Positions 16,428-32,532 of a DNA stretch of 64,000 nt are shown here, in pieces. Positions within the stretch are counted from its first letter, which is position 1. Each line of letters begins with the position of its first letter. The position numbers and the translations under genes are program-made. Below the pieces are notes generated by a model. That model saw only the letters and a program-made list of their open reading frames with translations. It was not told the origin of the DNA and did not search any database. Origin of the DNA: Aestuariivirga litoralis (GTDB taxonomy: Bacteria; Pseudomonadota; Alphaproteobacteria; Rhizobiales; Aestuariivirgaceae); assembly GCF_003234965.1 (NCBI RefSeq), contig NZ_QKVK01000011.1:1-64000 (forward strand), in the 5' to 3' direction.

Positions 16428-16922
16428 TCACTGCGCCAGCTGGCGGTAGCGGCCCTGCTGGTAGGTGAGGGGATCATGGTCCGAGGTCTGCACCTGCTGC
16501 ACCTGGCCGAGGAAGATGGTGTGGGTGCCGGCAGCGAGGCGGCCGGAGACGGTGCAGGCGAAGGCGGTGGCGTCCGGCAGCACCACGAAGCCATGCGCGG
16601 CGTGGTGGGCGTCGATGCCCTCGAAGCGGTCGGCCACCGCGCTGTCATGGCTGCCCGAGAAGCGTTCGGCCACATGCGGGTGGCGGTGCGACAGGATGTT
16701 GAGGCAGAAGGCGCCATTGGCCTCCACTGCCGCGGCGATGCGGCTGGCCGAGCGCAGGCAGACGAGGAGCTGCGGCGGATCGGCCGAGACCGAGGAGAAG
16801 GCGCTCACCGTGGCCCCATGGCGCCCCGCGGCGCCATGGGTGGTGACCACCGCCACGCTGCTGGCCACCTGGCGCATGCCGCGGATGAACAACTCGCGCG
16901 AGACGGGGTGAAGGCCCTCCAT
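16428..16922 (-). CDS. Flavin reductase domain protein (RutF/HpaC-like)
   Basis: Encodes 164 residues. The flavin-reductase-like FMN-binding fold is shown by VAVVTTHGAAGRHGATVSAFSSVSADPPQLLVCL, read in parts: VVTTHG, GATVSAFSSVS and PPQLLVCL, then FCLNILS and HTIFLGQV. The length equals that of E. coli RutF. It would supply reduced FMN to a two-component monooxygenase, and the only LLM oxygenase in the window is encoded at 32533-33570. It is the last gene of the leftward operon from 19920. The partnership is inferred. Confidence 0.9.
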   Translation of the reverse strand: MEGLHPVSRELFIRGMRQVASSVAVVTTHGAAGRHGATVSAFSSVSADPPQLLVCLRSASRIAAAVEANGAFCLNILSHRHPHVAERFSGSHDSAVADRFEGIDAHHAAHGFVVLPDATAFACTVSGRLAAGTHTIFLGQVQQVQTSDHDPLTYQQGRYRQLAQ

Positions 16923-16927
16923 GCCGC

Positions 16928-17536
16928 CTAGCGCCCGAGGCGGGCCGGATCGCTGACGTCGGCCCCGATGTCGGCGAGGTCCTGGTAGCGGTCGCCGATG
17001 CGGTGGTGCGGGCGCCCGCCCGTGGCGCCGCCGAACGCGGCGATCAGCTCGTCATCGGCCGGCGCGTCGGCGATCGAGAACTGCACCGTGAGGTAATGCG
17101 AGCGCCGCCCGGTGTCGTGCTTGTCCATCAGCGGGATCTGGATCTGCGTGTTGGCGGGCCCGCGCGTGTTGGTGAAGCCGAGATAGGTCTTGGCGCCCAG
17201 CGCCTCGCGGTAGAAATTGCCGAAATGCAGGGTGTGGATGAGGGCGGAGGCATGTTCCTGCTCGCAGTCGAGCCCCGCCATGGCGGCCTTGCCATAGGCC
17301 TCGATCCTGTCCGCCCCGCCGGCCATGGCGACGATGCGCTCGGTCAGGAGCTTGCCGAGGATGGGCGCGAAGGCGCGGATCTCGGGCTTCAGGTCTGCGA
17401 CATAGCCGCGGCCTGCCCAGGGGTTCTTCACCACCGCGGCGACGCCCAGCATGCGCAGCGGCGGGGTGGCGGCGCGTTCGCCCTCGAGATGGATTTCCTC
17501 CTCGAAGTTCACGAGCTTTCTGATCTTCAGTTCCAT
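16928..17536 (-). CDS. AA_synth family protein (DUF1185)
   Basis: Encodes 202 residues matching the 'amino acid synthesis' family (PF06684). Seen are MELKIRKLVNFEEEIHLEGE, AAVVKNPWAGRGYVADL and EQEHASALIHTLHFGNFYREALGAKTYLGFTN (in parts), and ANTQIQIPLMDKHDTGRRSHY. No biochemical function is established for the family that I can state with confidence. It is encoded five bases from the flavin reductase gene and 15 bases after the CoA-transferase gene, which places it in a catabolic operon rather than a biosynthetic one. Confidence 0.85.
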   Translation of the reverse strand: MELKIRKLVNFEEEIHLEGERAATPPLRMLGVAAVVKNPWAGRGYVADLKPEIRAFAPILGKLLTERIVAMAGGADRIEAYGKAAMAGLDCEQEHASALIHTLHFGNFYREALGAKTYLGFTNTRGPANTQIQIPLMDKHDTGRRSHYLTVQFSIADAPADDELIAAFGGATGGRPHHRIGDRYQDLADIGADVSDPARLGR

Positions 17537-17551
17537 GGCGGTCTCCGGCGT

Positions 17552-18736
17552 TCAGGTGACGGGTTTGGCGGGCGCGAACACGGGATTGTGCTCGCCCAGC
17601 CGCGGGGGTGTCGAAGCGGGAATAGCAGGGGTGAGGCTGAAACGCACCGGGTTGGCGGCGACGCGCCAGGCCTTGCGGCCGGGCTCGGCATGCGGCACCT
17701 CGGCGATCATGCCGCGCGCCGCCACATGCGGATCGGCGAAGATGTCGCGCGCGTCGTTGACCGGGCCGAAGGGCAGGCGGCCGCCAAGCAGCGCCGTGAG
17801 CTCGGCCTTGCTGCGGGACCTCGTCCATGTGCTCACCGCCTCGTTCACCTCCGCCGCATGGGCGCGGCGGCCGGACTTGCCGGCAAGGCGCGGGTCATCG
17901 GCGAGGTCGGGGCGTTCCATGATGCGGGCGAGCTCGCGCCAGAAGCCATCGTCGACGACGCCGATCGATACCCAGCCATCGGCGGCCGGGAACAGGCCGA
18001 AGGGGGCGAGCAGCGGGTGGCCGTTGCCGGCGGGCTCCGCCACCCTGCCTTCCATGTCGTAGAGATAGACCAGGCGCTCGCACAGGCTCAGCATCGCGTC
18101 ATACATGGCGATGTCGACGAACTGGCCCTGGCCGGTCTGCTCCGCGTGGCGCAGCGCGGCGACGATGGCGAAGGCCAGCATCATGCCGGCGAAGACGTCG
18201 CCGATGCCGGGGCCGGTCTTCATCGGGTGGTCGCGGTCCGCCCCCGTCATGCTCATCAGCCCGCCCATGGCCTGGGCGACCACGTCATAGGAGGGCCAGG
18301 CGGCATAGGGGCTCTCGCCGCTGCGCGGGTCGCCGAAGCCGCGGATCGCGGCATAGACGAGGGCGGGATTGAGCTTCGCCAGCTCCTCGTAGCCAAGCCC
18401 CAGCCGCTCCATCACGCCGGGGCGGAAATTCTCGACCACGACATGCGACGAGCGAACGAGCCCGCGCAGCGTGGCCTTCGCCTCCTCCTGCTTGAGGTCG
18501 AGCACGAGGCTCTTCTTGCCGCGGTTGAGGCTGACGAAATAGCCCGCCCAGTCATGCGCCGCGTCATCGGCGCGCCACGGGCCGTTGGAGCGGCTGGTGT
18601 CGCCCTCAGGCCCCTCGATCTTGATCACCTCGGCGCCGTGGTCGGCGAGCATCATGGTGCAATAGGGGCCGGAGAGCATGCGGCTCAGGTCCAGCACGCG
18701 GATGCCGGCGAGGATGCCGCGCGGCGCCTCAGCCAC
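17552..18736 (-). CDS. Class III (CaiB/BaiF) CoA-transferase
   Basis: Encodes 394 residues from a GTG at 18736 that overlaps the hydrolase stop; an ATG 36 bases upstream is possible but would overlap more deeply. The N-terminus GIRVLDLSRMLSGPYCTMMLADHGAEVIKIE is the family hallmark (given here as LDLSRMLSGPYC and GAEVIKIE). FSLNRGKKSL-like text, ENFRPGVMERLGLGYE with the usual region of the catalytic Asp (VDIAMYDAMLSL) follows. Such enzymes move CoA between carboxylic acids in an ordered mechanism. CaiB of this family acts on crotonobetaine and carnitine; because carnitine genes lie 10 kb away, a quaternary amine substrate is possible but unproven. Confidence 0.92.
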   Translation of the reverse strand: MAEAPRGILAGIRVLDLSRMLSGPYCTMMLADHGAEVIKIEGPEGDTSRSNGPWRADDAAHDWAGYFVSLNRGKKSLVLDLKQEEAKATLRGLVRSSHVVVENFRPGVMERLGLGYEELAKLNPALVYAAIRGFGDPRSGESPYAAWPSYDVVAQAMGGLMSMTGADRDHPMKTGPGIGDVFAGMMLAFAIVAALRHAEQTGQGQFVDIAMYDAMLSLCERLVYLYDMEGRVAEPAGNGHPLLAPFGLFPAADGWVSIGVVDDGFWRELARIMERPDLADDPRLAGKSGRRAHAAEVNEAVSTWTRSRSKAELTALLGGRLPFGPVNDARDIFADPHVAARGMIAEVPHAEPGRKAWRVAANPVRFSLTPAIPASTPPRLGEHNPVFAPAKPVT

Positions 18737-19526
18737 CCTGCACCCGCTGCAGGAAGTGAAGGAGCTTCGCATTGAACAGCTCCGGCGCCTCGGCCAGCGC
18801 CATGTGGCGCAAGCCCGGCAGGATGACGAGTTCGGAACCTGCGATCTCCGCCGCGATGGCGCGGCTCATGGCGGGGGAATTGCCATGGTCCTCCTCGCCG
18901 GTCATCACCAGCGTGGGCGCGGTGATCGGCGGCTTCGGCGCCACGAGCTCCGTCACGCCGTTGACCAGCACCTGGTAGATCGGCGCATAGATGTCCTTGC
19001 GGTTGGCGAGGATCCAGCGTCGCACCTCGTCCATCATCTGCGGGTGGCTCGCGCGGAAGCCGTCGGTGAACCAGCGCTGAAGCGCTGCCTCCACGGTGGC
19101 GGCGGGACCCTCCCTTGCGGCCTGCACCACGCGGGCCTGGATCGCCTCGTGCGCCGCCGTGTCGCGCGCATGGGCGGAGTGCAGGATGCCGAGCGCATCG
19201 AGCCTCCCGCCATGGTCCATGGCGAAGCGCCGCGCGATCATGCCGCCGAGCGAGAAGCCGAAGACCGAGGCACGTGCAATGCCGAGATGGTCGAGGAGCT
19301 CCGCCAGCTGCTCCGCGAACAGGCTGAGTGATGGCGTCCGCGGCGGCACGCTGCTGTCGCCATGGCCATGGAGGTCATAGGTGATGACGCGGTGCTTGGC
19401 CGCGAGTGCCGGCACCTGCCATTGCCAGGAGTGCCGGTTGAGGCCGAGGCCATGGACGAGCGCGATGGTGCGCTCACCTGAGCCGAAGCTTTCATAGGCC
19501 GTGCCGCGCGGGGTGCGGGAGGCCAT
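18729..19526 (-). CDS. Alpha/beta hydrolase (RutD/PcaD-like)
   Basis: Encodes 265 residues from the ATG at 19526, one base before the RidA stop codon. The oxyanion segment LVHGLGLNRHSWQWQ, nucleophile elbow GFSLGG (Ser near residue 95), acid TGEEDHGN and catalytic His in LRHMALAEAPE form a full triad. Closest family resemblance is to 3-oxoadipate enol-lactonase and RutD aminoacrylate hydrolase. In the Rut pathway RutD acts after RutC, a RidA protein, and here the gene also follows a RidA gene. The real substrate is unknown. Confidence 0.9.
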   Translation of the reverse strand: MASRTPRGTAYESFGSGERTIALVHGLGLNRHSWQWQVPALAAKHRVITYDLHGHGDSSVPPRTPSLSLFAEQLAELLDHLGIARASVFGFSLGGMIARRFAMDHGGRLDALGILHSAHARDTAAHEAIQARVVQAAREGPAATVEAALQRWFTDGFRASHPQMMDEVRRWILANRKDIYAPIYQVLVNGVTELVAPKPPITAPTLVMTGEEDHGNSPAMSRAIAAEIAGSELVILPGLRHMALAEAPELFNAKLLHFLQRVQGG

Positions 19527-19527
19527 G

Positions 19528-19920
19528 TCAGCCCGCCACCGGCTTGTAGGCGACGACTTCCACCTCGACGCGGACATCGACGAGGAGGTCGCTCACCACG
19601 GCGGAACGGGCCGGCGGTTCATCGGGAAAATATTCGCCATAGACGGCATTGAAGCCGGGGAAATCGGCGCGGTCGCGCAGCCAGACCATGGCCTTGACCA
19701 CGTCGGAGCGCTGGCAGCCGGCTTCGGCCAGCGTGGCGGTGATGGCGTCGAGCACGGCGCGGGTCTGCTCCTCCACCGTTCCCGTGGTCATCACCTGGCC
19801 GTCCCGGAACGGCACCTGGCCGGTGAGGAACACGAAGTCACCCGCGCGGATGGCGCGTGACAGCGACAGCTTGCGGCCGCCGATCACCAGTGGTCCGCCG
19901 ATCACCTGCTTGCTGCTCAC
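19528..19920 (-). CDS. RidA family protein
   Basis: Encodes 130 residues of the YjgF/YER057c/UK114 fold. Visible are LSLSRAIRAGDFVFLTGQVPF, TGTVEEQTRAVLDAI, VVKAMVWLRD, NAVYGEYFPDEPPARSAV and VEVEVVAYKP. The Arg in PPARSAV corresponds to the conserved active-site Arg of enamine/imine deaminases. RidA proteins hydrolyse reactive 2-aminoacrylate-type intermediates, and RutC is one member. It is the first gene of the leftward operon that ends with the flavin reductase and diverges from the aldehyde dehydrogenase gene. Confidence 0.93.
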   Translation of the reverse strand: MSSKQVIGGPLVIGGRKLSLSRAIRAGDFVFLTGQVPFRDGQVMTTGTVEEQTRAVLDAITATLAEAGCQRSDVVKAMVWLRDRADFPGFNAVYGEYFPDEPPARSAVVSDLLVDVRVEVEVVAYKPVAG

Positions 19921-20062
19921 CAGGCCCTCCCCCGAAACATCGAAAAACTATGCGTGCATGCTCCGGGCATTGTAATAGATTTCCGACAGCGCCCGGCGAA
20001 AATCTTGCATCACCGCCCTGCGTCGACCCTAGTCTCGGATGCAGTCGAAGGAGGCCCGACCC
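19921..20062. promoter_or_regulatory. Divergent RidA-operon / aldehyde dehydrogenase promoter region
   Basis: Reading left, TTACAA and CATAGT with a 17-base spacer could serve the RidA operon. Reading right, TTGCAT (20005-20010) followed after 17-18 bases by CCTAGTC could serve the aldehyde dehydrogenase. At 19974-19990 the region carries a 17-bp word (minus strand GCTGTCGGAAATCTATT) that recurs with four changes upstream of the LLM monooxygenase at 33644-33660. Confidence 0.45.
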
Positions 20063-21547
20063 ATGACCACGCTGCAGCGCTACCAGATGTTCATCGACGG
20101 CCAGTGGGTCGATGCCGCGGATGGGCGGACCTTCACCTCGATGAATCCGACGACGGGCGACGACTGGTCGGAGATCCCCGAGGCGACGGCAGCCGACGTC
20201 AACCGCGCGGTGGAGGCCGCGCACCGCGCCTTCACCAGCGGCGAATGGGCCAGTGCGCTCCCCACCACCCGCGGCAAGTATCTCCGCCGCCTCGCCGAAC
20301 TCCTGGCGCAGAAGTCCGAGGAGCTGGGCCGCACCGAGACCATCGACACCGGCAAGATGCTGAAGGAGACGCGCTGGCAGGCGAAGTACATCGCCGAGTT
20401 CTTCCAGTTCTATGCCGGGGCCGCCGACAAGGTAATGGGCAACACGCTGCCCATCGACAAGCCCGACATGCTGGCGATGACGCTGCGCGAGCCCCTGGGC
20501 GTGGTGGCCGCCGTGGTGCCGTGGAACTCGCAGCTGTTCCTCGTGGCGGTGAAGATCGGCCCGGCGCTGGCGGCGGGCAACACCGTGGTGCTGAAGGCCT
20601 CCGAACATGCTTCCGCCCCGATGCTGGATTTCGCGAAGCTCATGGAGGAGGCGGGCTTCCCGCCCGGCGTGTTCAATGTGGTGACGGGCCATGGCGACCC
20701 CTGCGGGCGGGTGCTCACCTCCCATCCGCTGGTGCAGCGCATCTCGTTCACCGGCGGGCCTGAATCGGCGCGCCACATCATCCGCAACTCGGCGGAGAAC
20801 TTCGCCGAGGTGTCGCTGGAACTGGGCGGCAAGTCGCCCTTCCTGGTGTTCGACGACGCCGACCTCGAGAGTGCGGTGAACGGCTCGATCTCGGGGATCT
20901 TCGGCGCCACCGGCCAGTCCTGCGTGGCGGGCTCCAGGCTGTACCTGCAGGAGAAGGTGGCGGACCAGTTCCTCGAGACGATGGTCTCTCGCGCCCGCCA
21001 GATCCGCATCGGCGATCCGCTGCTGGAGGAGACCCAGATGGGCCCGCTCGCCACCCACGGCCAGCTCGCCCGCATCGAGAAGGAAGTGGCCTTCGCACAG
21101 GAGCAGGGGGGCAAGCTTCTCACCGGTGGCCAGCGCCCGCCGGGCCAGAACCGCGGGCTGTTCTACGAACCCACCATCATCGAATGCCGGAGCCAGCAGG
21201 ACCGCATCGTCGACACCGAGATGTTCGGCCCGGTGCTGAGCGTGCTGCGCTTCAAGGACGAGGACGAGGTGGTGCGGCTCGCCAACGACACGAAGCACGG
21301 CCTCGCCGCCGGCGTCTTCACCCGCAACGGGGCCCGCGCCCTGCGCGTGACGAAGCAGCTGCGCGCCGGCATCGTGTGGGTGAACACCTATCGCGTCGTC
21401 TCGCCCATCGCCGAATTCGGCGGCTTCAAGGAGTCGGGCTATGGCCGCGAGAGCGGCTTCCAGGCGATCTACGACTACACGCGGCCCAAGACGGTGTGGA
21501 TCAACACCTCCGACCAGCCGCTGGCCAACCCCTTCGTCATGCGCTGA
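20063..21547 (+). CDS. NAD(P)-dependent aldehyde dehydrogenase
   Basis: Encodes 494 residues from the ATG at 20063, preceded by GAAGGAGG. Typical motifs are VPWNSQLFLVAVKIGPALAAGN (cofactor site, in parts), SFTGGPESARHI, the general base in LELGGKSPFLVF and the nucleophile in TGQSCVAGSRLY (Cys about residue 293). ETQMGPLATHGQLARIE and EMFGPVLSVLRF are also typical. The enzyme oxidises an aldehyde to a carboxylate in the cytoplasm. It diverges from the RidA operon and converges with the acyl-CoA synthetase gene, overlapping it by 11 bases. Substrate could be a betaine-type or semialdehyde intermediate; family-level naming only is safe. Confidence 0.93.
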   Translation: MTTLQRYQMFIDGQWVDAADGRTFTSMNPTTGDDWSEIPEATAADVNRAVEAAHRAFTSGEWASALPTTRGKYLRRLAELLAQKSEELGRTETIDTGKMLKETRWQAKYIAEFFQFYAGAADKVMGNTLPIDKPDMLAMTLREPLGVVAAVVPWNSQLFLVAVKIGPALAAGNTVVLKASEHASAPMLDFAKLMEEAGFPPGVFNVVTGHGDPCGRVLTSHPLVQRISFTGGPESARHIIRNSAENFAEVSLELGGKSPFLVFDDADLESAVNGSISGIFGATGQSCVAGSRLYLQEKVADQFLETMVSRARQIRIGDPLLEETQMGPLATHGQLARIEKEVAFAQEQGGKLLTGGQRPPGQNRGLFYEPTIIECRSQQDRIVDTEMFGPVLSVLRFKDEDEVVRLANDTKHGLAAGVFTRNGARALRVTKQLRAGIVWVNTYRVVSPIAEFGGFKESGYGRESGFQAIYDYTRPKTVWINTSDQPLANPFVMR

Positions 21548-23630
21548 GGCGCTGCATCAGCACGTCGACGGCGCAGGTTTCATGGACGCCGGCGAAGAGC
21601 GGGTTGATCTCGATCTCCGCCACCTCATTGGCCGGGTCGGCGGCGAAGGCGGCGAGGCGTTCGAGCGTGTCGAGGAGGGCCTCGCGGTTCGCGGCGGGCC
21701 TGCCGCGATAGCCAGCGAGCAGGCGGCTGATCTTCAAGCGCGACAGGGCGCGGGCGAGATCGGCGCGCGAGGCGGGCAGCAGCACGGTGACGGCATCGGC
21801 CAGGAGTTCGACGAGGATGCCGCCGGCGGCCAGCGTCATCGCAAGGCCGAATTGCGGGTCGCGCCGGATGCTGACCATCAGCTCCGCCACGGGCTGGGCC
21901 ACCATGGCCTCGACGAGGAACACATCCGTGAGGGCAGCCGGATTGTAGGCCGCGACGTCGGCCCGCATGCGCTGCACGGCCGCGGTGACGTCTTCCGCCG
22001 AGCGCAGGCCCAGCCTCACGGCGCCGGCTTCCGTCTTGTGCGGCAGTTTTTCGCTCACCATCTTGAGGGCCACCGGATAGCCCAGCTCCCGCGACAGCGC
22101 GGCGATCTCCGCGCCGCTGCCAATCCGGCTGTGCGGCACCGCGATGCCCTTTGCGGCAAGCAACGTCTTTGCAGCGGCCTCGTCGATGAGGCGCACGTCT
22201 CCGGCAGGTTGCTGCGGCAGCAACGGTGCTGTCGGACTGGCCGCGATCTCGGCGCGGCGCTCGCCATGCCACGCGGCAGCGGCAATCGCCGCCATGCATT
22301 GCTCGATGCCCTGCATCGGCGCCACGCCCTGCGCCACGAGGAAGCTGCGCGTCTCCTCGTCCAGGTTCTCGGGGATCGTGCTGCACACCGCGGCGGGCAG
22401 CGCTCGCGCCTTCGCCGCGGCGATGAAGGACAGCGTGTCGTTGCGATACCAGGGCTTGCTCTCGTCGAGGCCGGGGGCGGGATAGTCCTGCACGATCACC
22501 GCCGCGTCATGGCCTTGTGCGAAAAGTGTGTCGAACACCGGCCGCGTCTTTTCCGGAATGCCCCAGATCGGCGTCGTATAGTCGAGTGGGTTGGAAACGG
22601 TGGCGGTCTGCGGAAGGAGTACCCGCAGGCTCGCGGCTGTTGCCGCATCGGGTGGCGTGAAGCTCAAGTCCAGCCGCTCGGCATAATCCGCCAGCATGGT
22701 GGCGCCGCCGCCGGAGCAGGTGAGGCCCGCCAGACGCCGGCCCTTCGGAACACCCGCGACGCACAGGAACTTCACCGTCTCCAGCAGCTGCGCCGGACTG
22801 TCGGCGCGGATGATGCCCAGCCTGTCGAACAGCGCATCGTAGAGCTCTTCCGTTCCGGACAGCGAACCGGTGTGGCTGACCGTGAGGCTTGACCCCAGCC
22901 GCGAGGTGCCGGTCTTCAGCGCCACGATGGGCTTGCCGAGAGACAGGCTCTTCAGTGCCGCGCGCTCGAAGGCGGCGACGTCCTTAAGCCCCTCGATGTG
23001 CAGCCCGATGGCGCGCACCTCCGGGCGCTCGCACAGCGCATCGACGAAATCCTCGAGCCGCAGCAGCGTCTGGTTGCCGGCCGAGACCATGTAGGCGAAG
23101 GGCACGCCGCGCTGGCTCATGGTGAAGTCGGAGGACAGCATGCCGGATTGCGTGATGATGGCAGCGCCATGACCGGGGCAGGCACCGCCATGGGTGAAGG
23201 GCCACAGCGCAACCCTGTCGACGTAATTGATGACGCCATAGCAATTGGGCCCGACGAGTGCGAGATTGCCCGCCGCCTGCACCAGTCGCGCCTCGGCATC
23301 GGCCCCCTCGGCACCCGTTTCGCCGAAGCCCGCCGTGTAGCAGACGACACCACCCGCCCCCATGGCGCTGAGCTTGTGCAGCGCCTCGATGGCCGCTTCC
23401 TTCGGCACCGCGAGGAACACCGCGTCTGGCGCTTCCGGCAGATCTTCCACACTGGCGAAGCAGGCGTGGCCGCCGACCTGGCTGCGCTTCGGGTTCACCG
23501 GCCAGAAGGGGCCCGCAAAGCCGATGCGCTTGCATTCCGCCGCCACCGTCTCGGCGTCGCGCCCGCCGATCACCGCGACATGGCGCGGGCGCAGCAGCCG
23601 GTCGAGATTGGCGCGGGCCTTCGGCGTCAT
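21537..23630 (-). CDS. Single-chain NDP-forming acyl-CoA synthetase
   Basis: Encodes 697 residues with the order CoA-binding Rossmann domain (RPRHVAVIGGRDAETVAAEC, about residues 15-135), succinyl-CoA-ligase-like domains (ALVGPNCYGVINY, TQSGMLSSDF, SHTGSLSGTEELYDALF, about 140-460) and C-terminal ATP-grasp domain (PHSRIGSGAEIAALSRELGYPVALKMVSE, about 480-697, with INPLFAG). SHTGSLSG corresponds to the phospho-histidine region of the ligase alpha part. It would interconvert acid, CoA and ATP with acyl-CoA, ADP and phosphate, reversibly. It overlaps the acyl-CoA dehydrogenase gene by four bases and ends the operon led by the beta-keto acid cleavage enzyme. Gamma-butyrobetaine or carnitine is the likely substrate from context. 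Confidence 0.9.
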   Translation of the reverse strand: MTPKARANLDRLLRPRHVAVIGGRDAETVAAECKRIGFAGPFWPVNPKRSQVGGHACFASVEDLPEAPDAVFLAVPKEAAIEALHKLSAMGAGGVVCYTAGFGETGAEGADAEARLVQAAGNLALVGPNCYGVINYVDRVALWPFTHGGACPGHGAAIITQSGMLSSDFTMSQRGVPFAYMVSAGNQTLLRLEDFVDALCERPEVRAIGLHIEGLKDVAAFERAALKSLSLGKPIVALKTGTSRLGSSLTVSHTGSLSGTEELYDALFDRLGIIRADSPAQLLETVKFLCVAGVPKGRRLAGLTCSGGGATMLADYAERLDLSFTPPDAATAASLRVLLPQTATVSNPLDYTTPIWGIPEKTRPVFDTLFAQGHDAAVIVQDYPAPGLDESKPWYRNDTLSFIAAAKARALPAAVCSTIPENLDEETRSFLVAQGVAPMQGIEQCMAAIAAAAWHGERRAEIAASPTAPLLPQQPAGDVRLIDEAAAKTLLAAKGIAVPHSRIGSGAEIAALSRELGYPVALKMVSEKLPHKTEAGAVRLGLRSAEDVTAAVQRMRADVAAYNPAALTDVFLVEAMVAQPVAELMVSIRRDPQFGLAMTLAAGGILVELLADAVTVLLPASRADLARALSRLKISRLLAGYRGRPAANREALLDTLERLAAFAADPANEVAEIEINPLFAGVHETCAVDVLMQRLSA

Positions 23631-24787
23631 GCGCCGAGCGGCCGCAGGATGGCGCGCGAGATGATGTGGCGCTGGATTTCCGAGGTGCCGTCCCAGATGC
23701 GCTCGAGCCTGGCGTCGCGCCACAGGCGCTGGATGGGAAGCTCTTCCATCAGCCCCATGCCGCCATAGATCTGCACCGTGTTGTCGGCCACGCGGTTCAC
23801 CATCTCGGAGCAGTAGAGCTTCACCATCGAGATGTCGGCATCGCTGAGCGTGCCCTCATTGGCGCGGCGCACGGCGTCCTCGACGAGGAGGTCGGCGGCG
23901 CGCAGCTCGGTGGCCATGTCGGCGAGCTTGAAGCCGGTGCCCTGGAACTTGCCGATGGCCTGGCCGAACTGCTTGCGGCTCGCCGCCCATTCTGTGGCAT
24001 AGCCCATCAGCCGCTCCGCCTTGCCGCAGCACGAGGCGCCGACGAAGATGCGGCCATAGGTGAGCCACTGGCCCGAAAGCTCCAGCCCCTTGCCCTCCTC
24101 GCCGAGGATCTGGCGCTGGTGGAGGCGCACGTTGTCGAAGCTGAGCTGGAAGGTCTTGTAGCCCCTGTAGCTGACGCAATGCGTGCCGTCGCGCACGTCG
24201 AAGCCCGGCGTTCCGACGTCGACGAGGAAGGCGGTGACGCGCTTCCTGGACCCGCGCGGGCCCTCATCGACGCCCGTGGCGGCGAAGACGATGGCGAAAT
24301 CCGGCATCACCGGGCCCGAGATGAAATGCTTCGATCCATTGAGGATCCAGTCGTCGCCGTCGCGCCGGGCGTTCGACTTCATGCCCATCACGTCGGAGCC
24401 GGCCTCGGGCTCGGTCAGCGCGAAAAGCTCGCGCTTCTCGCCCTTCACGCAGGGGTAGAGGTAGCGCTCGCGCTGCTCGCCCTCGCAGGCCAGCAGCAGT
24501 TCGGTGGGCCTCGCCACCCAGCTGTGCAGCGCGTGGCTGGTCTTGCCGAATTCGCGCTCCATGATCACCTTGGCCTCGAGGCTCAGGCCCCCGCCGCCCA
24601 CTTCCTCCGGCAGGTTGGCGGCATAGAGGCCCGCCTCATGGGCGCGCGCCTCGATCTGGCGGCCGATCTCGAGGGGCACCTCGCCCAGCCTGTCGACGAG
24701 GTCCTCGTGCGGGTGGAGCTCGGCCTTCATGAAGGCCTGGACGGTTTCCAGCAGCAGGCGGTTTTCGTGGGAACTGACGAGACTCAA
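23627..24787 (-). CDS. Acyl-CoA dehydrogenase (CaiA-like context)
   Basis: Encodes 386 residues from a TTG at 24787, chosen because GGAGG lies six bases upstream and the product then has the normal family length; a GTG at 24799 is an alternative. FALTEPEAGSD (FAD and substrate binding), WILNGSKHFISG, GYKTFQLSFDNVRL, RKQFGQAIGKFQ and the C-terminal QIYGGMGLMEELPIQRLWRDARLERIWDGTSEIQR region (in parts YGGMGLMEE, IWDGTSEIQ) are typical. It introduces a double bond into an acyl-CoA and passes electrons to ETF. Located between the ABC permease and the acyl-CoA synthetase, it fits gamma-butyrobetainyl-CoA oxidation to crotonobetainyl-CoA, by inference. Confidence 0.92.
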   Translation of the reverse strand: MSLVSSHENRLLLETVQAFMKAELHPHEDLVDRLGEVPLEIGRQIEARAHEAGLYAANLPEEVGGGGLSLEAKVIMEREFGKTSHALHSWVARPTELLLACEGEQRERYLYPCVKGEKRELFALTEPEAGSDVMGMKSNARRDGDDWILNGSKHFISGPVMPDFAIVFAATGVDEGPRGSRKRVTAFLVDVGTPGFDVRDGTHCVSYRGYKTFQLSFDNVRLHQRQILGEEGKGLELSGQWLTYGRIFVGASCCGKAERLMGYATEWAASRKQFGQAIGKFQGTGFKLADMATELRAADLLVEDAVRRANEGTLSDADISMVKLYCSEMVNRVADNTVQIYGGMGLMEELPIQRLWRDARLERIWDGTSEIQRHIISRAILRPLGA

Positions 24788-24804
24788 GCGATCCTCCACG
24801 GGGC

Positions 24805-25599
24805 TCAGGCGGCCTCTTCGCCGCGCCTGCGCGACAGGAGCGCGAAGCCGACGATGAAGACGAGGGTTGTACAGATCAGCACCACTGCCGCGGCGGCGAC
24901 GGTGGGGTCGGTGTTCTCGCGCATGCCGTTCCACAGGCGGCGCGGCAGGGTGAAGACGTCGAACTTGGAGATGAACAGCGTCACCACGATCTCGTCCCAT
25001 GACAGGATGAAGGCGAAGACCGCGCCCGCGACGATTCCCGGGCGGATCACCGGCAGGATGACACGGCGCACCGTGGTCGGGAGCGAGGCGCCGAGGCTGC
25101 GCGAGGCCTGTTCGAGCCTGAGGTCGAAATTGGCCAGTGCCGCCGAGACGGTGATCACCACCATGGGAATTGCCAGGATGGCATGGGCAAGGATGATGCC
25201 CATGTAGCTGTCGATCAGGCCGAGCGGCACCCACCAGCGATAGAAGGCCATGGCGGAGATGATCGGCGGCACCATCAGCGGCAGCAGCAGGAAGGCGCGG
25301 ATCGCCTCGATGAAGCGCCCCGACAGGCGCCACAGGCCGATGGCGGCCAGCGTGCCGAGCAGCGTGGCAAGCGCCGAGGAGACGATGGCGATGAGCAGGC
25401 TCTGGCCGAAGCTCGAGATCCATTCCGGGCTGGTCAGCAGGTTCCGGAAGTGGCGCAGCGAGGCGCCTTCCCACGGGAAGGAGAGGTAGGTCTTGCCGGT
25501 GACGGAAACCGGGAAGGCGACGAGCGACGGGATGATGAGGATCGAGAGGATCACCCAGGCGGCGATGCGGTTGATGCGGCCGGCGAGCGAGGGCTTCAT
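24805..25599 (-). CDS. ABC transporter permease (PotC-like)
   Basis: Encodes 264 residues with six membrane segments. The EAA loop reads EQASRSLGASLPTTVRRVILPVIRPGIVAG (shortened: SLGASLPTTVRRVILPVI), the usual contact with the ATPase. The architecture is that of PotC-type permeases for polyamine or quaternary amine importers. It overlaps the PotB-like gene by four bases (25596-25599) and is followed after 17 bases by the acyl-CoA dehydrogenase gene, tying the transporter to that catabolic step. Confidence 0.92.
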   Translation of the reverse strand: MKPSLAGRINRIAAWVILSILIIPSLVAFPVSVTGKTYLSFPWEGASLRHFRNLLTSPEWISSFGQSLLIAIVSSALATLLGTLAAIGLWRLSGRFIEAIRAFLLLPLMVPPIISAMAFYRWWVPLGLIDSYMGIILAHAILAIPMVVITVSAALANFDLRLEQASRSLGASLPTTVRRVILPVIRPGIVAGAVFAFILSWDEIVVTLFISKFDVFTLPRRLWNGMRENTDPTVAAAAVVLICTTLVFIVGFALLSRRRGEEAA

Positions 25600-26444
25600 C
25601 GCGCTGCTCCGCCGAAGACGACCGACAGCTTCATGAAGCGGTTCAGCACATACATCAGCACCAGCACGCTGGCGATCATCAGCGTGGCCAGCATGGCGGC
25701 CACACCCCAGCGCACGGTGACGAGCAGCTGCACCGAGATGTATTCGGCGATCATCTGCACCTTGCCGCCGCCGAGGATGGCGGGGGTCACGTAGAAGCCG
25801 AGCGAGCTGATGAAGACGAGCAGCGCGGCCGCGATGATGCCGGGCCTCGTGAGCGGCAGGAAGACGCGGAAGAAGGTCTGGGCATGGCTGGCGCCGAGGC
25901 TGCGCGAGGCGCTGGAGACGCGCGGGTCGATGCCCTGCATGTTGGCGAGCAGCGGCAGGATGGCGTAGGGCAGCATGTATTCGGTCATGCCGATCAGCAC
26001 GCCGAGCTCATTGCGCATGAGGGGCAGTGGCTCCGCGATGATGCCCAGCCTCAGCAGCATGTCGTTCAGGAGGCCATTGTGGCCGAGCAGCATGAGCCAG
26101 GCGAAGGAGCGCACCAGCACCGAGATCCAGAACGAGATGAGCAGGATCGACATCATGCGCCGGCGCACACCGGCCAGCGCATGCAGCATGGCATAGGACA
26201 CGATGTAGCCGAGCGTGACCGCGGCCACCGTGGTGATGAGGCAGAGCCTGATGGTGCGCCAGATCAGGTTGGCCACCGTGTCGCTCTCGAAGATCTTGGC
26301 ATAGTTGCCGAGGCCGGGCTTCGGGTCGGTGACGCTCAGCAGCAGCACGTTCACGATGGGCGCCACATAGAGCGCCAGCACCAGCAGCACCGCGGGCGCC
26401 ACCAGCAGCCAGTAGGGATTGAACGTGAAGCGGCGCGTGTTCAT
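25596..26444 (-). CDS. ABC transporter permease (PotB-like)
   Basis: Encodes 282 residues from the ATG at 26444, giving NTRRFTFNPYWLLVAPAVLL with a first membrane segment near the start; the frame remains open upstream without a coding look. The EAA loop is present as SSASRSLGASHAQTFFRVFLPL. Six membrane helices are expected. It pairs with the PotC-like protein and the ATPase encoded at 27671-28705. A strong stem-loop separates it from the binding-protein gene. Confidence 0.9.
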   Translation of the reverse strand: MNTRRFTFNPYWLLVAPAVLLVLALYVAPIVNVLLLSVTDPKPGLGNYAKIFESDTVANLIWRTIRLCLITTVAAVTLGYIVSYAMLHALAGVRRRMMSILLISFWISVLVRSFAWLMLLGHNGLLNDMLLRLGIIAEPLPLMRNELGVLIGMTEYMLPYAILPLLANMQGIDPRVSSASRSLGASHAQTFFRVFLPLTRPGIIAAALLVFISSLGFYVTPAILGGGKVQMIAEYISVQLLVTVRWGVAAMLATLMIASVLVLMYVLNRFMKLSVVFGGAAR

Positions 26445-26497: not shown

Positions 26498-27607
26498 TCA
26501 GCCGATGGCGTCGAGGAAGGCGTTGACGGCGTCGCCGCCATTGTCGGCCCACCACACCGGATCGTTGAAGATCACCTTGTCGATGTTCTGCGCCGAGTTG
26601 ACGGCATAGGGCGCCATGGCCTCCGGGATCTTGGCGAAGGCTTCGGGGTTCGACGGCGTCATGCCGAGGCAGTCGAGGATGGCGAGCTGCGAGTCGACCT
26701 GCAGGGCCTGCGCGATGAACTTCATCACGTTGTCGCGGCCCGCCGGGTTGCCGCGCGGCACGATGTAGGCGCCGGGCATGGCGATCGCCTCGTTCATCAC
26801 CATCTTGTAGCGGCCATTGGTGCGCTCCTCGATGGTCTTGCCGCGGTTCTGCCAGATCATGCCCATCGCCACTTCGCCGTTGACGATCATGTCATGGGCT
26901 TCCGAGCCCGAGCCCCAGTAGAGGCTGTCGCCCTTGATGGTCTTGATCTTGGTGATGGCGCGCGGCACGTCGCAGGGGTAGACCTTGTCCTTCGGTACGC
27001 CGTCGGCGACCAGCGCGCTCTCGATCGAGCCGTTGGCCCATTTGTAGAGCGAGCGCTTGCCGGGGAACTTGGCGGTGTCATAGAAGTCGGCCCAGCCCTG
27101 GGGCGGATTGTCGCCGAAGGCCTTGGTGTCATACATGAAGGCGTAGCCGTAGAAGATGACGCAGACGCCATAGTCCCAGGCGAAGCCGTCCTTGATCTGC
27201 TTCTTGTTGACGATGTTGTAGTCGATGGCCTCGAGATGGCCCGACTTGCCGAGCGCAATGGCATCGAAGCCGTCGGCGTCGCAGACGTCGGCCGTCACCT
27301 TGCCGGAATCGACCATCTCCTTGATCTTGCCCTGGAGCGGCCCCGAGGTGTCGAACTTCAGCGGAATGCCGGTCGCGGCGGTGAAGGGCTTGCCGATGGC
27401 GCTGCCGTGGCAGCTCTCGGATTCACCGCCCCAGTTCCACATGACGATCTCGTTGGCGGCGGCTTCGGCGTCGCCGGCCTTCACCGCCAGCGTGGCGACT
27501 CCCGCCAGGCCGCACAGCATCAGGAAGCTGCGGCGGTCGAGCCGGCCGGACTTGAAGGCAATTGCACCCTCGCGCGCGAGGTCATTCAGGAAAGCTTTGT
27601 CTTTCAT
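26498..27607 (-). CDS. ABC transporter substrate-binding protein (PotD-like, probable quaternary amine)
   Basis: Encodes 369 residues from the ATG at 27607. A twin-arginine-type signal (LDRRSFLMLCGLAGVATLAV, about residues 24-43) precedes the mature domain, so Tat export is possible. It belongs to the extracellular solute-binding family of PotD/PotF. Several Trp-rich segments (MWNWGGES, FAWDYGVC, LYWGSGSE, MIWQNRG, DPVWWADNGG) could form an aromatic cage for a quaternary ammonium or polyamine ligand. Neighbouring carnitine genes favour carnitine, gamma-butyrobetaine or crotonobetaine. Confidence 0.88.
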   Translation of the reverse strand: MKDKAFLNDLAREGAIAFKSGRLDRRSFLMLCGLAGVATLAVKAGDAEAAANEIVMWNWGGESESCHGSAIGKPFTAATGIPLKFDTSGPLQGKIKEMVDSGKVTADVCDADGFDAIALGKSGHLEAIDYNIVNKKQIKDGFAWDYGVCVIFYGYAFMYDTKAFGDNPPQGWADFYDTAKFPGKRSLYKWANGSIESALVADGVPKDKVYPCDVPRAITKIKTIKGDSLYWGSGSEAHDMIVNGEVAMGMIWQNRGKTIEERTNGRYKMVMNEAIAMPGAYIVPRGNPAGRDNVMKFIAQALQVDSQLAILDCLGMTPSNPEAFAKIPEAMAPYAVNSAQNIDKVIFNDPVWWADNGGDAVNAFLDAIG

Positions 27608-27670
27608 GGTCACGTCCTCCATTTTGCTGCGGCCTCGGCCGCGGTCATCGTTGCGGGCCTGCGCCCGGTC

Positions 27671-28705
27671 TCATGCGGATCTTGCGCCCGCTTCTTCGCC
27701 GTCACCGCCCTCGACCTCGACCTGAGCATCATCGCTCCAGCAGAGATCGACGGCCTGTGAGTCACTGAACGGCCCCGCATTGCGCCAGGCGGGGACGTGA
27801 ACCTCGATCACCGGGTGGCCCTCGGCCACGACCATCAGCTTGAGGGTGGCGCCCATGTAGGTGATGCCGCGGATGGTGCCAGTGAGCCGGTTCTGGCCAT
27901 GGCCCCGGCCGGCGTGGAACACCTCGATCTTTTCGGGGCGCAGCGCGAAGGTCCGGCCATCGCGGTGGATGAAGTTGCTCTTGCCGAGGAAGCTCGCGGC
28001 AAAGGCGGTGCGCGGCCTTTCGTAGAGTGCCTCCGGGCTGCCCACCTGCACGACCTTGCCGCGATTCATGATCACGATGCGGTCCGACATGGTGAGGGCT
28101 TCCTCCTGGTCATGCGTCACGTAGATGAAGGTGGTGCCGACGCGGTTGTGGATCTCCTTCAGCTGCTCCTGCACGTCGGCGCGCAGCTTGCGGTCGAGCG
28201 CGCCCAGGGGCTCGTCGAGGAGCAGGACGCGGGGCGAGAAGCTGAGCGCGCGGGCCAGCGCCACGCGCTGCTGCTGGCCGCCCGACAGCTGGTGCGGATA
28301 GCGGCCGGCGAAGCCCTTGAGCTGCACGAGGTCCAGCATCTCGCCGACGCGCGCGTCGATCTCGGGCCTGGGCTTCCGGCGGATCTCGAGCGGATAGGCG
28401 ATGTTCTTCGCCACCGTCATGTGCGGGAACAGGGCATAGCCCTGGAACACCATGCCGAAATTGCGCTTCTCGGGCGGGGTCGCGGCAATCGATGCGCCGC
28501 CCACCAGGATGTCGCCCTGCGTGATGTCCTGGAAGCCCGCCAGCATCATCAGCAGCGTGGTCTTGCCGGAACCGGACGGCCCCAGCAGCGTCAGGAACTC
28601 GCCCGCGCGGATGTCGAGCGACACGCCGTCGACGGCGGTCATCTTCCCGTATCGCTTGGTGACGCCCTGGAAGACGACACCGATGCCGGAAGGGCTGGCG
28701 CTCAT
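27671..28705 (-). CDS. ABC transporter ATP-binding protein (PotA-like)
   Basis: Encodes 344 residues from the ATG at 28705, which overlaps the stop of the upstream cleavage-enzyme gene by four bases. Walker [10 protein letters not shown] (about residues 42-50), Q-loop [13 protein letters not shown], signature [15 protein letters not shown], Walker [13 protein letters not shown] and H-loop YVTHDQEEA are all intact. A C-terminal TOBE-like regulatory domain follows ([14 protein letters not shown]). It energises the PotBC-like permease pair downstream. A 63-base gap separates it from the binding-protein gene. Confidence 0.94.
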
Positions 28706-29589
28706 CCCTGCTTCTTGAGCCCGAGCTTCTTGCGCGCCTCGGCCGGCGTCAGCACCCTTGCCCCCATGCGCTCGATGATGCCGACGACGCGCTCGACGAG
28801 CTGGGCATTGCTCGCCAGCACGCCGCGGTCGAGATAGAGGTTGTCCTCGAGACCCACCCGCACGTTGCCGCCCATCGCCACCGCCGCGGCGGCCATCGGC
28901 ATCTGCATGCGCGAGATGCCGAAGCTGGCCCAGCTCGCGTTGGCGGGGAGCTGGTCCTTCATCGCCTTCATGTTGTCGACCGACTGGTCGGCACCCCACG
29001 GAATGCCGAGGCAGATCTGGAACATCGGCGGGTCCTCGATCAGGCCCTCGGCGATCAGCTGCTTCGCCAGCCGGATGTGCCCTAAGTCGAAGACCTCGAG
29101 CTCGGGCTTCACGCCCCATTCCTTCACCAGTGCGGCCATGCGGCGGAGATAGGGCGGCGTGGACATGTAGACGTAATTGCCGTCGCCGAAATTCATCGAG
29201 CCGCAGTCGAGGCTGCAGATCTCGGGGCGCAGCATCTCGACGTGGCGCAGCCGCTCCTCCGGCCCGATCATGTCGGTGCCGGGGCCGGGCCTGCAGGGGT
29301 CTGCCTCGCTGATCATCCAGTCACCGCCCATGCCGGCGGTGAGGTTGATGACGACGTCGGTGCCGCTGGAGCGCACGATGTCCACCGCACGCCTGAACAG
29401 CTCAGGATCGCGCGAGCCCTTGCCGGTGGCCGGGTCGCGCACGTGGAGATGGGCCGCCGTTGCGCCGGCCTTGGCGGCGTCGATCGCCGCCTGGGCGATC
29501 TGCTCCGGCGTCACGGGCACGCCCGGGTGCTTGCCCAGCGTATCGCCCGCGCCGGTGACCGCACATGTCACGATGACTTCGAAGTTCAC
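28702..29589 (-). CDS. Beta-keto acid cleavage enzyme (BKACE, DUF849), probable 3-dehydrocarnitine cleavage
   Basis: Encodes 295 residues from a GTG at 29589 preceded by GAGGGAGAG. Metal-binding and catalytic features of the BKACE TIM barrel are seen: [21 protein letters not shown] in part, [35 protein letters not shown] and [17 protein letters not shown]. The zinc histidines lie in HLHVRD. The family condenses a beta-keto acid with acetyl-CoA to give acetoacetate and a new CoA ester. Next to an L-carnitine dehydrogenase and a CdhR-like regulator the likely substrate is 3-dehydrocarnitine, giving betainyl-CoA. It leads the operon with the ABC transporter. Confidence 0.88.
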
Positions 29590-29700
29590 GCTGTCTCTCC
29601 CTCAGGCTTTTCTTGTTATGGCCGAAATGATTTGCCCGAATGCCGCGGAGCGTTATAGAATTTTCGCCATCAATTCGTTTTTTTCGCCGGTCACGAAATC
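29590..29700. promoter_or_regulatory. Divergent control region with TTTTCGCC direct repeats
   Basis: This AT-richer gap separates the cleavage-enzyme operon (left) from the CdhR-like gene (right). TTTTCGCC occurs at 29661-29668 and again at 29681-29688, exactly 20 bases apart, about two helical turns, as expected for half-sites of an AraC-type activator. A promoter for the leftward operon must also be here, but its boxes are not clear. Confidence 0.5.
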
Positions 29701-30765
29701 ATGGCGCAATCGGCTGATGTGGCAACGGAGCCGGGTGACGTGACCCGCGTGAGCTTCGTGCTGCTGCCGCGCTTCAACATGATGACGCTGACGATGCTCA
29801 TGGAGCCGATGCGCATCGCCAACTATCTTGCACCGCACAAACTCTATGAATGGGACTTCCGCGCCACCGCCGCCGGGCCGGTGTCGGCCAGCAACGGCCT
29901 CAGCGTCGCCTGCCGCCCCATCGACGAGGAGGGACTGGCGAAGCCCGACATCATCGCGGTGTGCGGCAGCTGGGGGGCGGAGCACATGAACGACCAGCGG
30001 CTGTTCCGCTGGCTGCGCCGCAACGCCCGCGCCCAGGTGCAGATGGTGGCGGTGGAACTCGGCATCTATGCCTTCGCCAAGGCGGGTCTCGTCACCGACC
30101 ACAAGGTGACGACGCACTGGTCGATGATGGCGGGGCTGGCCGAGGCGCATCCCGGCCTCGAGGTGGTGGAGCAGCTCTATTCGGTGGAGAAGCCGGTGAT
30201 GACCTGTGCCGGCGGCACGGCGGGCCTCGACCTGATGCTGCACATCGTGGGGCGCAAGAACGGCGACCAGCTGGCCGCCGAGATCGCCAACCAGGTGATG
30301 CACCACCCGCGCCGTCCGCCCGAATCGCTGCAGCGCCACGCCACCGGCGGCAAGCATGACGACGTGCACCAGGACGTGCGCGCCGCGATGACGCTGCTCG
30401 AGGGCCGCATCGAGGACCCGACACCGGTGCCGCGCGTCTGCCGCGAGCTCGGCGTGTCGCAGAGGAAGCTCGAGCGCCTGTTCAAGCGCGACATCGGCTG
30501 CACCATCGTGCAGTATTCGAAGCTGCTGCGGCTGCAATATGCGCGCGTGCTGCTGAGCTCGACGCGCATGTCGATCCGCGAGGTGTCGGCCGCCTGCGGC
30601 TTCAACTCCATGTCCTATTTCTCGCAGAGCTTCCTGCAGGCCTTCGGCAAGAAGCCGAGCGAATACCGCCAGGCCTGGCCGGAGAAGGATGCCGCGCCGT
30701 CATGGCCCGGCACCGTCTATGCCTATCTGCAGACGGCGCGGAAGCAGCCGCGCAAGCGCGGCTAG
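29701..30765 (+). CDS. GlxA/CdhR-like AraC-family regulator
   Basis: Encodes 354 residues from the ATG at 29701, which lacks a ribosome site; a GTG at 29740 with GGAG nine bases ahead is a good alternative start. An N-terminal DJ-1/PfpI-like domain (VCGSWGAEHM, VAVELGIYAFAKAGL, about residues 15-200) precedes a C-terminal AraC helix-turn-helix pair (VCRELGVSQRKLERLFKRDIG and IREVSAACGFNSMSYFSQSF, about 235-335). CdhR of Pseudomonas, an activator of carnitine genes, has this layout. It diverges from the cleavage-enzyme operon and its stop overlaps that of the carnitine dehydrogenase gene by four bases. Confidence 0.88.
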   Translation: MAQSADVATEPGDVTRVSFVLLPRFNMMTLTMLMEPMRIANYLAPHKLYEWDFRATAAGPVSASNGLSVACRPIDEEGLAKPDIIAVCGSWGAEHMNDQRLFRWLRRNARAQVQMVAVELGIYAFAKAGLVTDHKVTTHWSMMAGLAEAHPGLEVVEQLYSVEKPVMTCAGGTAGLDLMLHIVGRKNGDQLAAEIANQVMHHPRRPPESLQRHATGGKHDDVHQDVRAAMTLLEGRIEDPTPVPRVCRELGVSQRKLERLFKRDIGCTIVQYSKLLRLQYARVLLSSTRMSIREVSAACGFNSMSYFSQSFLQAFGKKPSEYRQAWPEKDAAPSWPGTVYAYLQTARKQPRKRG

Positions 30766-32521: not shown

Positions 32522-32532
32522 GGCGGGCACAC

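What the first reader, a model, noticed from the sequence alone, without database searches (positions are those of the whole stretch)
16428..19920. Rut-like parts in an operon with CoA-transferase and DUF1185
The operon encodes RidA, alpha/beta hydrolase and flavin reductase in sizes and families of RutC, RutD and RutF, while an LLM flavin monooxygenase (family of RutA) is encoded at 32533-33570. RutB and RutE equivalents are missing. In their place are a CaiB-type CoA-transferase and an AA_synth (DUF1185) protein. This suggests oxygenolytic opening or N-dealkylation of a nitrogenous compound that releases an enamine for RidA, then CoA activation of the acid. It does not match the pyrimidine pathway and may be a new variant.
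Basis: partly seen in the sequence, partly recalled or inferred. Interest (0 to 1): 0.62.

Follow-up and report, generated by a model that had tools for sequence, protein, structure and literature searches.

The report
Trigonelline-type ring-opening cluster beside carnitine-like genes
These genes are not a version of the pyrimidine (Rut) pathway but a separate branch of the pathway that bacteria use to open the ring of trigonelline, joined to carnitine-type enzymes, and they probably let the cell eat a related plant or algal nitrogen compound that is still unknown.

Summary
The genes are real and at the stated coordinates. The Rut frame fails: RidA, hydrolase and reductase reach less than half of the RutC, RutD and RutF cut-off scores, and the LLM enzyme is 25% identical to E. 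coli RutA. That set stands in one order in 7 of 7 Moraxellaceae loci examined and on S. meliloti pSymA. The window holds a separate branch: its LLM clade (A) is 35-44% identical to the Tgn clade (T), both with 100% bootstrap, and 6 of 17 genomes with the window-type cluster also hold a T-like LLM. Branch A adds RidA, often a CoA-transferase (fused to the reductase in 42 of 80 loci) and carnitine-type hydratase, dehydrogenase and BKACE (28, 28 and 26 of 46 loci). TTTTCGCC occurs three times in the window, all in this cluster's two divergent promoters, which suggests co-regulation. Substrate unknown; a pyridinium-type betaine is likeliest, homarine one candidate.

The parts
16428..16922 (-). flavin reductase, 164 aa (TgnA-like in role; lacks the extra C-terminal ~150 aa of most relatives)
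   Evidence: Pfam Flavin_Reduct 2.4e-37; RutF 105 of 254.75 bits, not met; 31% to the reductase domain of the Acinetobacter-type copy
16928..17536 (-). DUF1185 / AA_synth protein, TgnF-like
   Evidence: Pfam 3e-66; 62% to the DUF1185 of the Acinetobacter-type cluster; relative named TgnF in PMC7913881
17552..18736 (-). class III (CaiB-type) CoA-transferase
   Evidence: Pfam 3.4e-131; best NCBIfam match succinyl-CoA:mesaconate CoA-transferase, 425 of 700 bits, L-carnitine CoA-transferase only 131 of 413
18729..19526 (-). alpha/beta hydrolase, TgnD-like in role
   Evidence: 27% to the Acinetobacter-type copy, 21% to RutD
19528..19920 (-). RidA-family protein
   Evidence: Pfam 3.3e-28; RutC 58.4 of 169.1 bits, not met
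19978..20004 (.). candidate operator, imperfect inverted repeat GATTTCCGAC/GATTTTCGCC in the divergent RidA/ALDH promoter
20039..21547 (+). aldehyde dehydrogenase, TgnC-like
   Evidence: Pfam 5.5e-165; 57% to the TgnC-like and 33% to the SSADH-like copy of the Acinetobacter-type cluster
21537..23630 (-). ADP-forming-type acyl-CoA ligase
   Evidence: Pfam; start
23627..24799 (-). acyl-CoA dehydrogenase
   Evidence: Pfam; start
24805..25599 (-). ABC transporter permease
   Evidence: Pfam
25596..26444 (-). ABC transporter permease
   Evidence: Pfam; start
26498..27622 (-). ABC solute-binding protein
   Evidence: Pfam SBP_bac_8 1.5e-35
27671..28705 (-). ABC ATPase, polyamine-type; 57% to the ATPase of the S. 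meliloti pSymA trigonelline-type cluster
28702..29589 (-). BKACE (beta-keto acid cleavage enzyme)
   Evidence: Pfam 4e-103
29661..29688 (+). two TTTTCGCC words 20 bases apart in the BKACE/regulator promoter
29701..30765 (+). AraC/GlxA-type regulator, GbdR-like
   Evidence: Pfam; NCBIfam GbdR 228 of 480 bits
30762..31721 (-). 3-hydroxyacyl-CoA-dehydrogenase-family protein, carnitine-dehydrogenase-like paralog
   Evidence: NCBIfam L-carnitine dehydrogenase 326.8 of 414 bits, not met
31718..32536 (-). enoyl-CoA hydratase, crotonobetainyl-CoA-hydratase-like
   Evidence: 322 of 500 bits, not met
32533..33570 (-). LLM (luciferase-like) monooxygenase, clade A of the TgnB-like group
   Evidence: Pfam 8e-50; tree
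33683..34801 (-). beta-lactamase-family serine hydrolase, kept between LLM and CMD in two close relatives
   Evidence: Pfam; L131 and L132
34785..35180 (-). carboxymuconolactone-decarboxylase-family protein (start not certain)
   Evidence: Pfam; 69% to the CMD beside the Psychrobacter cluster; CMD also in 7 of 7 Moraxellaceae loci

Best explanation
The region is a catabolic island built on a diverged copy (clade A) of the trigonelline-type oxygenolytic pathway. The reductase makes FMNH2, the LLM enzyme oxygenates and opens an N-alkylated ring of a betaine (a pyridinium-type compound is likeliest), the aldehyde dehydrogenase oxidises the exposed aldehyde, the alpha/beta hydrolase removes the formyl group from the enamide, and RidA hydrolyses the released enamine, giving an amine and a keto or semialdehyde acid. 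DUF1185 (TgnF-like) and CMD assist the last steps. The ABC transporter imports the substrate. The CoA-transferase/ligase, acyl-CoA dehydrogenase, hydratase, dehydrogenase and BKACE deal with a carnitine-like acid that comes from, or comes in with, the same substrate. The GbdR-like regulator probably switches on both operons. Shown: gene content, conserved order, homology to the trigonelline set, separate LLM clade, shared promoter word. Inferred: every reaction, the substrate and the regulator's site. Which Tgn letter is the aldehyde dehydrogenase (C) and which the hydrolase (D) is recalled, not from a call.
For: Order DUF1185-hydrolase-reductase-LLM-aldehyde dehydrogenase in 7 of 7 Moraxellaceae loci examined, out of 12 of 149 genomes with this LLM, and on S. 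meliloti pSymA. The LLM of one of these loci is 96% identical to one in an Acinetobacter baumannii record. PMC7913881 (passage) says TgnF is a DUF1185 homologue that stimulates TgnE-dependent oxidation of succinic semialdehyde; PMC8269262 (passages) says TgnA/TgnB open the trigonelline ring. Window ALDH 57%, DUF1185 62%, LLM 40% to the Acinetobacter-type set. Clades A, T and B of the LLM each one side of a branch, support 100/99, 100/100, 95/91. 6 of 17 genomes with the window-type cluster also hold a T-like LLM, three of the six placed in T by the tree. CoA-transferase-reductase fusion ORFs in 42 of 80 loci, hydrolase-reductase in 3. TTTTCGCC three times in 64 kb, all in the two divergent promoters. 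Glutamate-synthase-like triplet beside the cluster in 4 of 80 loci and a type III glutamine-synthetase-like gene in one, which fits release of a methylamine.
Against: Hydrolase and reductase are only 27% and 31% identical to the Acinetobacter-type copies, so their step may differ. 10 of the 38 full-flank loci with LLM lack the hydratase and dehydrogenase, so the carnitine-type genes may be mere neighbours. The ring is inferred from clade T only. The operator word was chosen after looking; its number in the window (3) is not above expectation (about 2), only its placement is, and a looser pattern has 33 matches scattered over the window. Ruegeria pomeroyi DSS-3 grew better on trigonelline than on homarine (PMC8269262), while strain SZCCDBG043 has only the clade-A LLM, which would fit trigonelline itself if DSS-3 is alike.
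Confidence: 0.6

Rival explanations
1. It is simply a trigonelline pathway whose enzymes have drifted; the carnitine-type genes are unrelated neighbours.
For: Same core parts as the trigonelline set; R. pomeroyi strain SZCCDBG043 has only this LLM of the group, and R. pomeroyi DSS-3 grew on trigonelline (PMC8269262 passages).
Against: A and T LLMs coexist in 6 of 17 genomes and form separate clades; 26 columns are fixed differently between 17 A and 9 T sequences chosen by me. Branch A adds RidA in 37 of 46 loci, not seen in the 7 Moraxellaceae loci.
Confidence: 0.13
2. It is the homarine (N-methylpicolinate) pathway: opening of the ring beside the nitrogen, then deformylation and RidA hydrolysis of a 2-enamino acid to 2-oxoglutarate and methylamine.
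For: The chemistry explains the added RidA (inference); most of the 80 relatives are marine Rhodobacteraceae by record title; methylamine-type genes beside the cluster in 4 of 80 loci; PMC13390433 (passage) reports that Mgd takes part in homarine catabolism.
Against: Does not explain the hydratase, dehydrogenase, BKACE or CoA-transferase. PMC8269262 argues that TgnA/TgnB would be hindered on homarine. The 2026 homarine paper cited there could not be read, so the real homarine genes may be others, or may be these.
Confidence: 0.25
3. It is a pathway for an open-chain betaine (gamma-butyrobetaine, crotonobetaine or an acyl carnitine): the CoA-type genes carry the main route and the LLM removes the amine or oxygenates a keto intermediate.
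For: LLM, hydratase and dehydrogenase genes overlap in window and R. pomeroyi; dehydrogenase and hydratase have carnitine models as best match; GbdR-like regulator; LLM-hydratase-dehydrogenase occur as a unit apart from the rest in locus L144.
Against: None of these enzymes reaches its carnitine equivalog cut-off; own genome holds a second paralogous set at contig C2 and R. pomeroyi SZCCDBG043 a true carnitine 3-dehydrogenase elsewhere (828 of 592 bits); the conserved ALDH and DUF1185 point to the trigonelline-type series.
Confidence: 0.22
4. A Rut pathway variant.
For: Same broad families: LLM, reductase, RidA, hydrolase.
Against: RutC, RutD, RutF cut-offs not met; LLM-RutA 25%, RidA-RutC 32%, hydrolase-RutD 21%; no RutB or RutE family among the ORFs scanned.
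Confidence: 0.02

Closest known systems
Trigonelline degradation, TgnA-F of Acinetobacter baylyi (Perchat et al. 2018; not held, known here through passages of PMC7913881, PMC8269262 and a table of PMC9151330)
   Same: Flavin reductase, LLM, aldehyde dehydrogenase, alpha/beta hydrolase and DUF1185 (TgnF); a CMD gene near by
   Different: LLM in another clade (35-44% identity); RidA added; CoA-transferase, often fused to the reductase; hydratase, dehydrogenase, BKACE and acyl-CoA genes; GlxA/GbdR-like instead of GntR-type regulator; no SSADH in the cluster
Clade-B clusters (Agrobacterium fabrum pAt, Mesorhizobium ciceri, Azospirillum oryzae plasmids), function unknown
   Same: Reductase, aldehyde dehydrogenase, LLM, hydrolase, CMD and DUF1185
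   Different: LLM 43-52% to clade A; ProX-type betaine or amino acid ABC transporters instead of the polyamine type; no hydratase or dehydrogenase listed beside them
Bacterial carnitine degradation (carnitine 3-dehydrogenase, BKACE, GbdR/CdhR-type regulator)
   Same: Dehydrogenase, BKACE and regulator families in the same neighbourhood
   Different: Equivalog cut-offs not met; the true match in R. pomeroyi SZCCDBG043 lies elsewhere
Rut pyrimidine pathway of E. coli
   Same: Four broad families
   Different: No equivalog met, RutB and RutE absent, low identities

Membership tests
Rut pathway | RutC, RutD, RutF equivalog scores | tested here: not met
   58.4/169.1, 76.5/238.5, 105/254.75 bits
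Rut pathway | RutA-type LLM | tested here: not met
   25.3% to E. coli RutA over 296 aligned positions; no RutA model among the 25 of 30 NCBIfam hits shown
Rut pathway | RutB and RutE genes present | tested here: not met
   not among the 30 ORFs scanned; elsewhere in the genome not searched
Trigonelline (Tgn) pathway | reductase, LLM, aldehyde dehydrogenase, hydrolase and DUF1185 genes clustered | tested here: met
Trigonelline (Tgn) pathway | LLM inside the clade that holds the Acinetobacter-type TgnB | tested here: not met
   separate clades A and T, 100/99 and 100/100
Trigonelline (Tgn) pathway | succinate-semialdehyde dehydrogenase (TgnE) in the cluster | tested here: not met
   the only aldehyde dehydrogenase found in 11.8-37.5 kb is 57% to the TgnC-like and 33% to the SSADH-like copy; rest of genome not searched
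Trigonelline (Tgn) pathway | oxygenation of trigonelline by the LLM | not testable with these tools
   needs an enzyme assay
Carnitine degradation | carnitine dehydrogenase equivalog | tested here: not met
   326.8/414 and 266.2/592 bits
Carnitine degradation | BKACE that accepts dehydrocarnitine | not testable with these tools
   family membership only
Homarine (hom) operon | identity with the published hom genes | not tested
   the paper is not held

The most novel reading that the evidence does not exclude
A hybrid catabolic pathway, widespread in marine Rhodobacteraceae and present in some soil bacteria, in which a trigonelline-type flavin oxygenase of a distinct clade opens the ring of an abundant pyridinium-type betaine (homarine or a still unnamed one), and the ring-opened acid itself is loaded onto CoA by a CoA-transferase that is often fused to the flavin reductase, then hydrated, oxidised and split by BKACE to acetoacetate.
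Probability: 0.2. Interest if true: 0.75.

Novelty: new variant of a known kind. Interest (0 to 1): 0.55.

Why it matters
If right, a large group of 'LLM class oxidoreductase' and 'amino acid synthesis family' genes in marine and soil bacteria can be placed in ring-opening pathways for N-methylated betaines, with at least three LLM branches of which only one has a known substrate. It gives DUF1185 (structures solved, function guessed as amino acid synthesis in 2010) a consistent home beside these enzymes, and gives a testable list of substrates and hosts. The amount of homarine and related compounds in the sea makes the missing substrate of interest for carbon and nitrogen cycling.

Tried and rejected
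Rejected: Rut membership. Rejected: plain carnitine cluster, because of equivalog failures and paralogous sets elsewhere. My first idea, that the window is simply the trigonelline cluster, was dropped after searches showed a separate clade that coexists with the trigonelline clade.

Led nowhere: PDB search with the LLM gave only distant matches, best 7bip at 1.6e-25; PDB search with BKACE did not tell the substrate; a tree with RutA and three own-genome paralogs had very long branches and is not used for placement; two paper searches for homarine genes gave no description of them; a last paper search for DUF1185 and LLM product names gave no functional paper in the 20 of 64 listed. Structure prediction and fold search were not used. 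A pattern GATTTYCGMC with one mismatch was too loose to mark the operator (33 matches). The type III glutamine-synthetase model is over its cut-off in the own genome and in 9 of 10 genomes searched, so it does not discriminate.

Novelty in print rests in one open-access library only; the two key papers (Perchat 2018, the 2026 homarine paper) are not in it.


Full report
What is there. The five genes of the finding lie where stated, on the minus strand, as one tight operon. Two things were missed: a divergent aldehyde dehydrogenase at 20039-21547, and that the LLM gene overlaps a hydratase gene, which overlaps a dehydrogenase gene. Between the two blocks lie an ADP-forming-type acyl-CoA ligase, an acyl-CoA dehydrogenase, a four-part ABC transporter, BKACE and a GbdR-like regulator. 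Upstream of the LLM follow a beta-lactamase-family gene and a CMD-family gene. A close relative (L132) keeps this whole order from reductase to CMD, and another (L131) the part from dehydrogenase to CMD.

Conservation. A search of genome contigs with DUF1185 kept 80 loci of 330 relatives. In the 46 that hold at least 9 kb on both sides, the aldehyde dehydrogenase is seen in 46, hydrolase in 45, LLM in 38, RidA in 37, reductase in 36, CoA-transferase in 31, regulator in 29, hydratase and dehydrogenase in 28 each, BKACE in 26, acyl-CoA dehydrogenase in 15, ligase in 10. Five of the eight without LLM are near relatives of the window (L005, L006, L007, L009, L010), where it can lie further off, as it does in the window and in L132. 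In the window's genus a copy at 86% or more is present in 6 of 36 other genomes, so the island is patchy.

Not Rut. RutC, RutD and RutF models score 58.4 of 169.1, 76.5 of 238.5 and 105 of 254.75 bits. Identities are 25% for LLM and RutA, 32% for RidA and RutC, 21% for hydrolase and RutD. Tblastn with E. coli Rut proteins found nothing at 1e-5 in the stretches around the three other LLM genes of this genome.

The trigonelline template. With the LLM of a Psychrobacter locus, 12 of 149 genomes of its family had a match. In the 7 examined more widely, DUF1185, hydrolase, reductase, LLM and aldehyde dehydrogenase stand in that order, 7 of 7 with a CMD gene near by, and an SSADH-like gene was seen in 5; that of L113 passes the SSADH subfamily cut-off, 687 of 646 bits. 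The LLM of L113 is 96% identical to one in an Acinetobacter baumannii record. A passage in PMC7913881 states that a DUF1185-type protein, TgnF, stimulates TgnE-dependent oxidation of succinic semialdehyde in A. baylyi ADP1; the same paper could not show such an effect for its own DUF1185 protein. Passages in PMC8269262 state that TgnA/TgnB open the trigonelline ring. A. baylyi ADP1 itself was not fetched, and the roles of TgnC (aldehyde dehydrogenase) and TgnD (hydrolase) are recalled. The same order stands on S. meliloti pSymA, with an ABC transporter whose ATPase is 57% identical to the window's and an SSADH-like gene; that record has no annotation, so these are my ORF calls. That S. meliloti carries trigonelline genes on this plasmid is recalled.

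A separate branch. Plasmid records show many relatives (436 records at 1e-20). A tree of 31 LLM sequences chosen by me gives three groups: A (window, marine Rhodobacteraceae, Aminobacter sp. SR38, Parasedimentitalea), T (Moraxellaceae, Burkholderia multivorans, S. meliloti, Leisingera) and B (Agrobacterium, Mesorhizobium, Azospirillum and two Rhodobacterales), with supports 100/99, 100/100 and 95/91. Identity between A and T is 35-44%. Of 17 genomes that hold the window-type cluster, 6 also hold a T-like LLM at 56-71% to the Acinetobacter-type one; the three whose neighbourhood I fetched have the full T operon. Sixty columns are invariant in both A and T, and 26 are fixed but different, among them N8/H, M50/F, A75/G, S108/R and W195/T. 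That some of these line the substrate pocket is recalled from luciferase and not tested.

What branch A adds. RidA is translated with the hydrolase. The CoA-transferase is closest to succinyl-CoA:mesaconate CoA-transferase (425 of 700 bits) and far from L-carnitine CoA-transferase (131 of 413). In 42 of 80 loci one ORF holds CoA-transferase and reductase, in 3 hydrolase and reductase; two of the 42 (L019, L029) are shorter than the full fusion. The record of Parasedimentitalea marina annotates a single 2124-base CoA-transferase gene at that place. The carnitine-type genes are frequent but separable: 10 of 38 full-flank loci with LLM lack hydratase and dehydrogenase. Aminobacter sp. SR38 has the same set without a CoA-transferase in the RidA operon, and an acetoacetate-CoA ligase behind the acyl-CoA ligase, which fits acetoacetate from BKACE.

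Not plain carnitine. The window dehydrogenase scores 326.8 of 414 and 266.2 of 592 bits on the two carnitine models. In R. pomeroyi SZCCDBG043 a fused protein elsewhere scores 828 of 592. The window's genome has a second set of regulator, BKACE, dehydrogenase, acyl-CoA dehydrogenase, ligase and hydratase on contig C2, whose dehydrogenase is also under the cut-off (350.8 of 414) but nearer.

Co-regulation. The RidA/ALDH gap is nearly unchanged over 35 bases between the window and L132. Half-sites TTTCG[CTA]C or G[GAT]CGAAA occur in 58 of 65 such gaps (64 loci plus the window; the other 16 of 80 loci lacked one of the genes within reach); 25 have two or more, against a mean of 0.38 and at most 3 in 200 shuffled sets. 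The window's own gap holds one exact and one altered half-site. TTTTCGCC occurs three times in the 64 kb, once in this gap and twice, 20 bases apart, in the BKACE/regulator gap. The total is not above expectation (about 2); only the placement is striking, and the word was chosen after seeing these gaps. A weaker pair can be read upstream of the LLM at about 33648-33677.

Substrate. The chemistry of branch T suggests an N-alkylpyridinium. Homarine would explain RidA (a 2-enamino acid after deformylation) and the marine spread, but not the CoA genes. Methylamine-type genes lie beside the cluster in 4 of 80 loci. R. pomeroyi DSS-3 grew better on trigonelline than on homarine (PMC8269262 passages); the strain searched here is another one. 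I therefore leave the substrate open.

Noticed in passing
11793-16415: Imelysin, di-haem oxidoreductase, second imelysin and DUF1513 genes in a row on the plus strand, an iron-uptake-type operon ending just beside the finding.
   Followed up: no
G000 contig C2, locus L128 6461-14412: Second paralogous carnitine-type cluster: GbdR-like regulator, BKACE, dehydrogenase, acyl-CoA dehydrogenase, ADP-forming ligase, hydratase.
   Followed up: partly
L021, L025, L041, L066, between LLM and ALDH: An extra gene of about 380 aa (family F25, Rieske-like by eye, not scanned) inserted in the LLM-ALDH operon in 4 of 80 loci.
   Followed up: no
L034, L035, L044, L054, L062, L073, L083, L084: An arginase-family gene near DUF1185 in 8 of 80 loci (Pfam on the L073 copy); a look-alike by sequence start stands in L145 behind a second clade-A LLM cluster.
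   Followed up: no
L133 3835-9078: In Aminobacter sp. SR38 a CoA ester lyase, MaoC dehydratase, CoA transferase, acyl-CoA dehydrogenase and MmgE/PrpD row lies next to DUF1185, which might handle a C5 dicarboxylate.
   Followed up: no
G000 contig C12 222137-223263: Two tandem DUF1185 genes unlike the window's (37-39% identity), without LLM near by.
   Followed up: partly
L134, L139, L140: Clade-B clusters with betaine or amino acid ABC transporters and unknown substrate.
   Followed up: partly
L017 9064-9987 and L113 9389-10321: The reductases of most relatives carry about 150 extra C-terminal residues without a Pfam match; the window's reductase lacks them.
   Followed up: no
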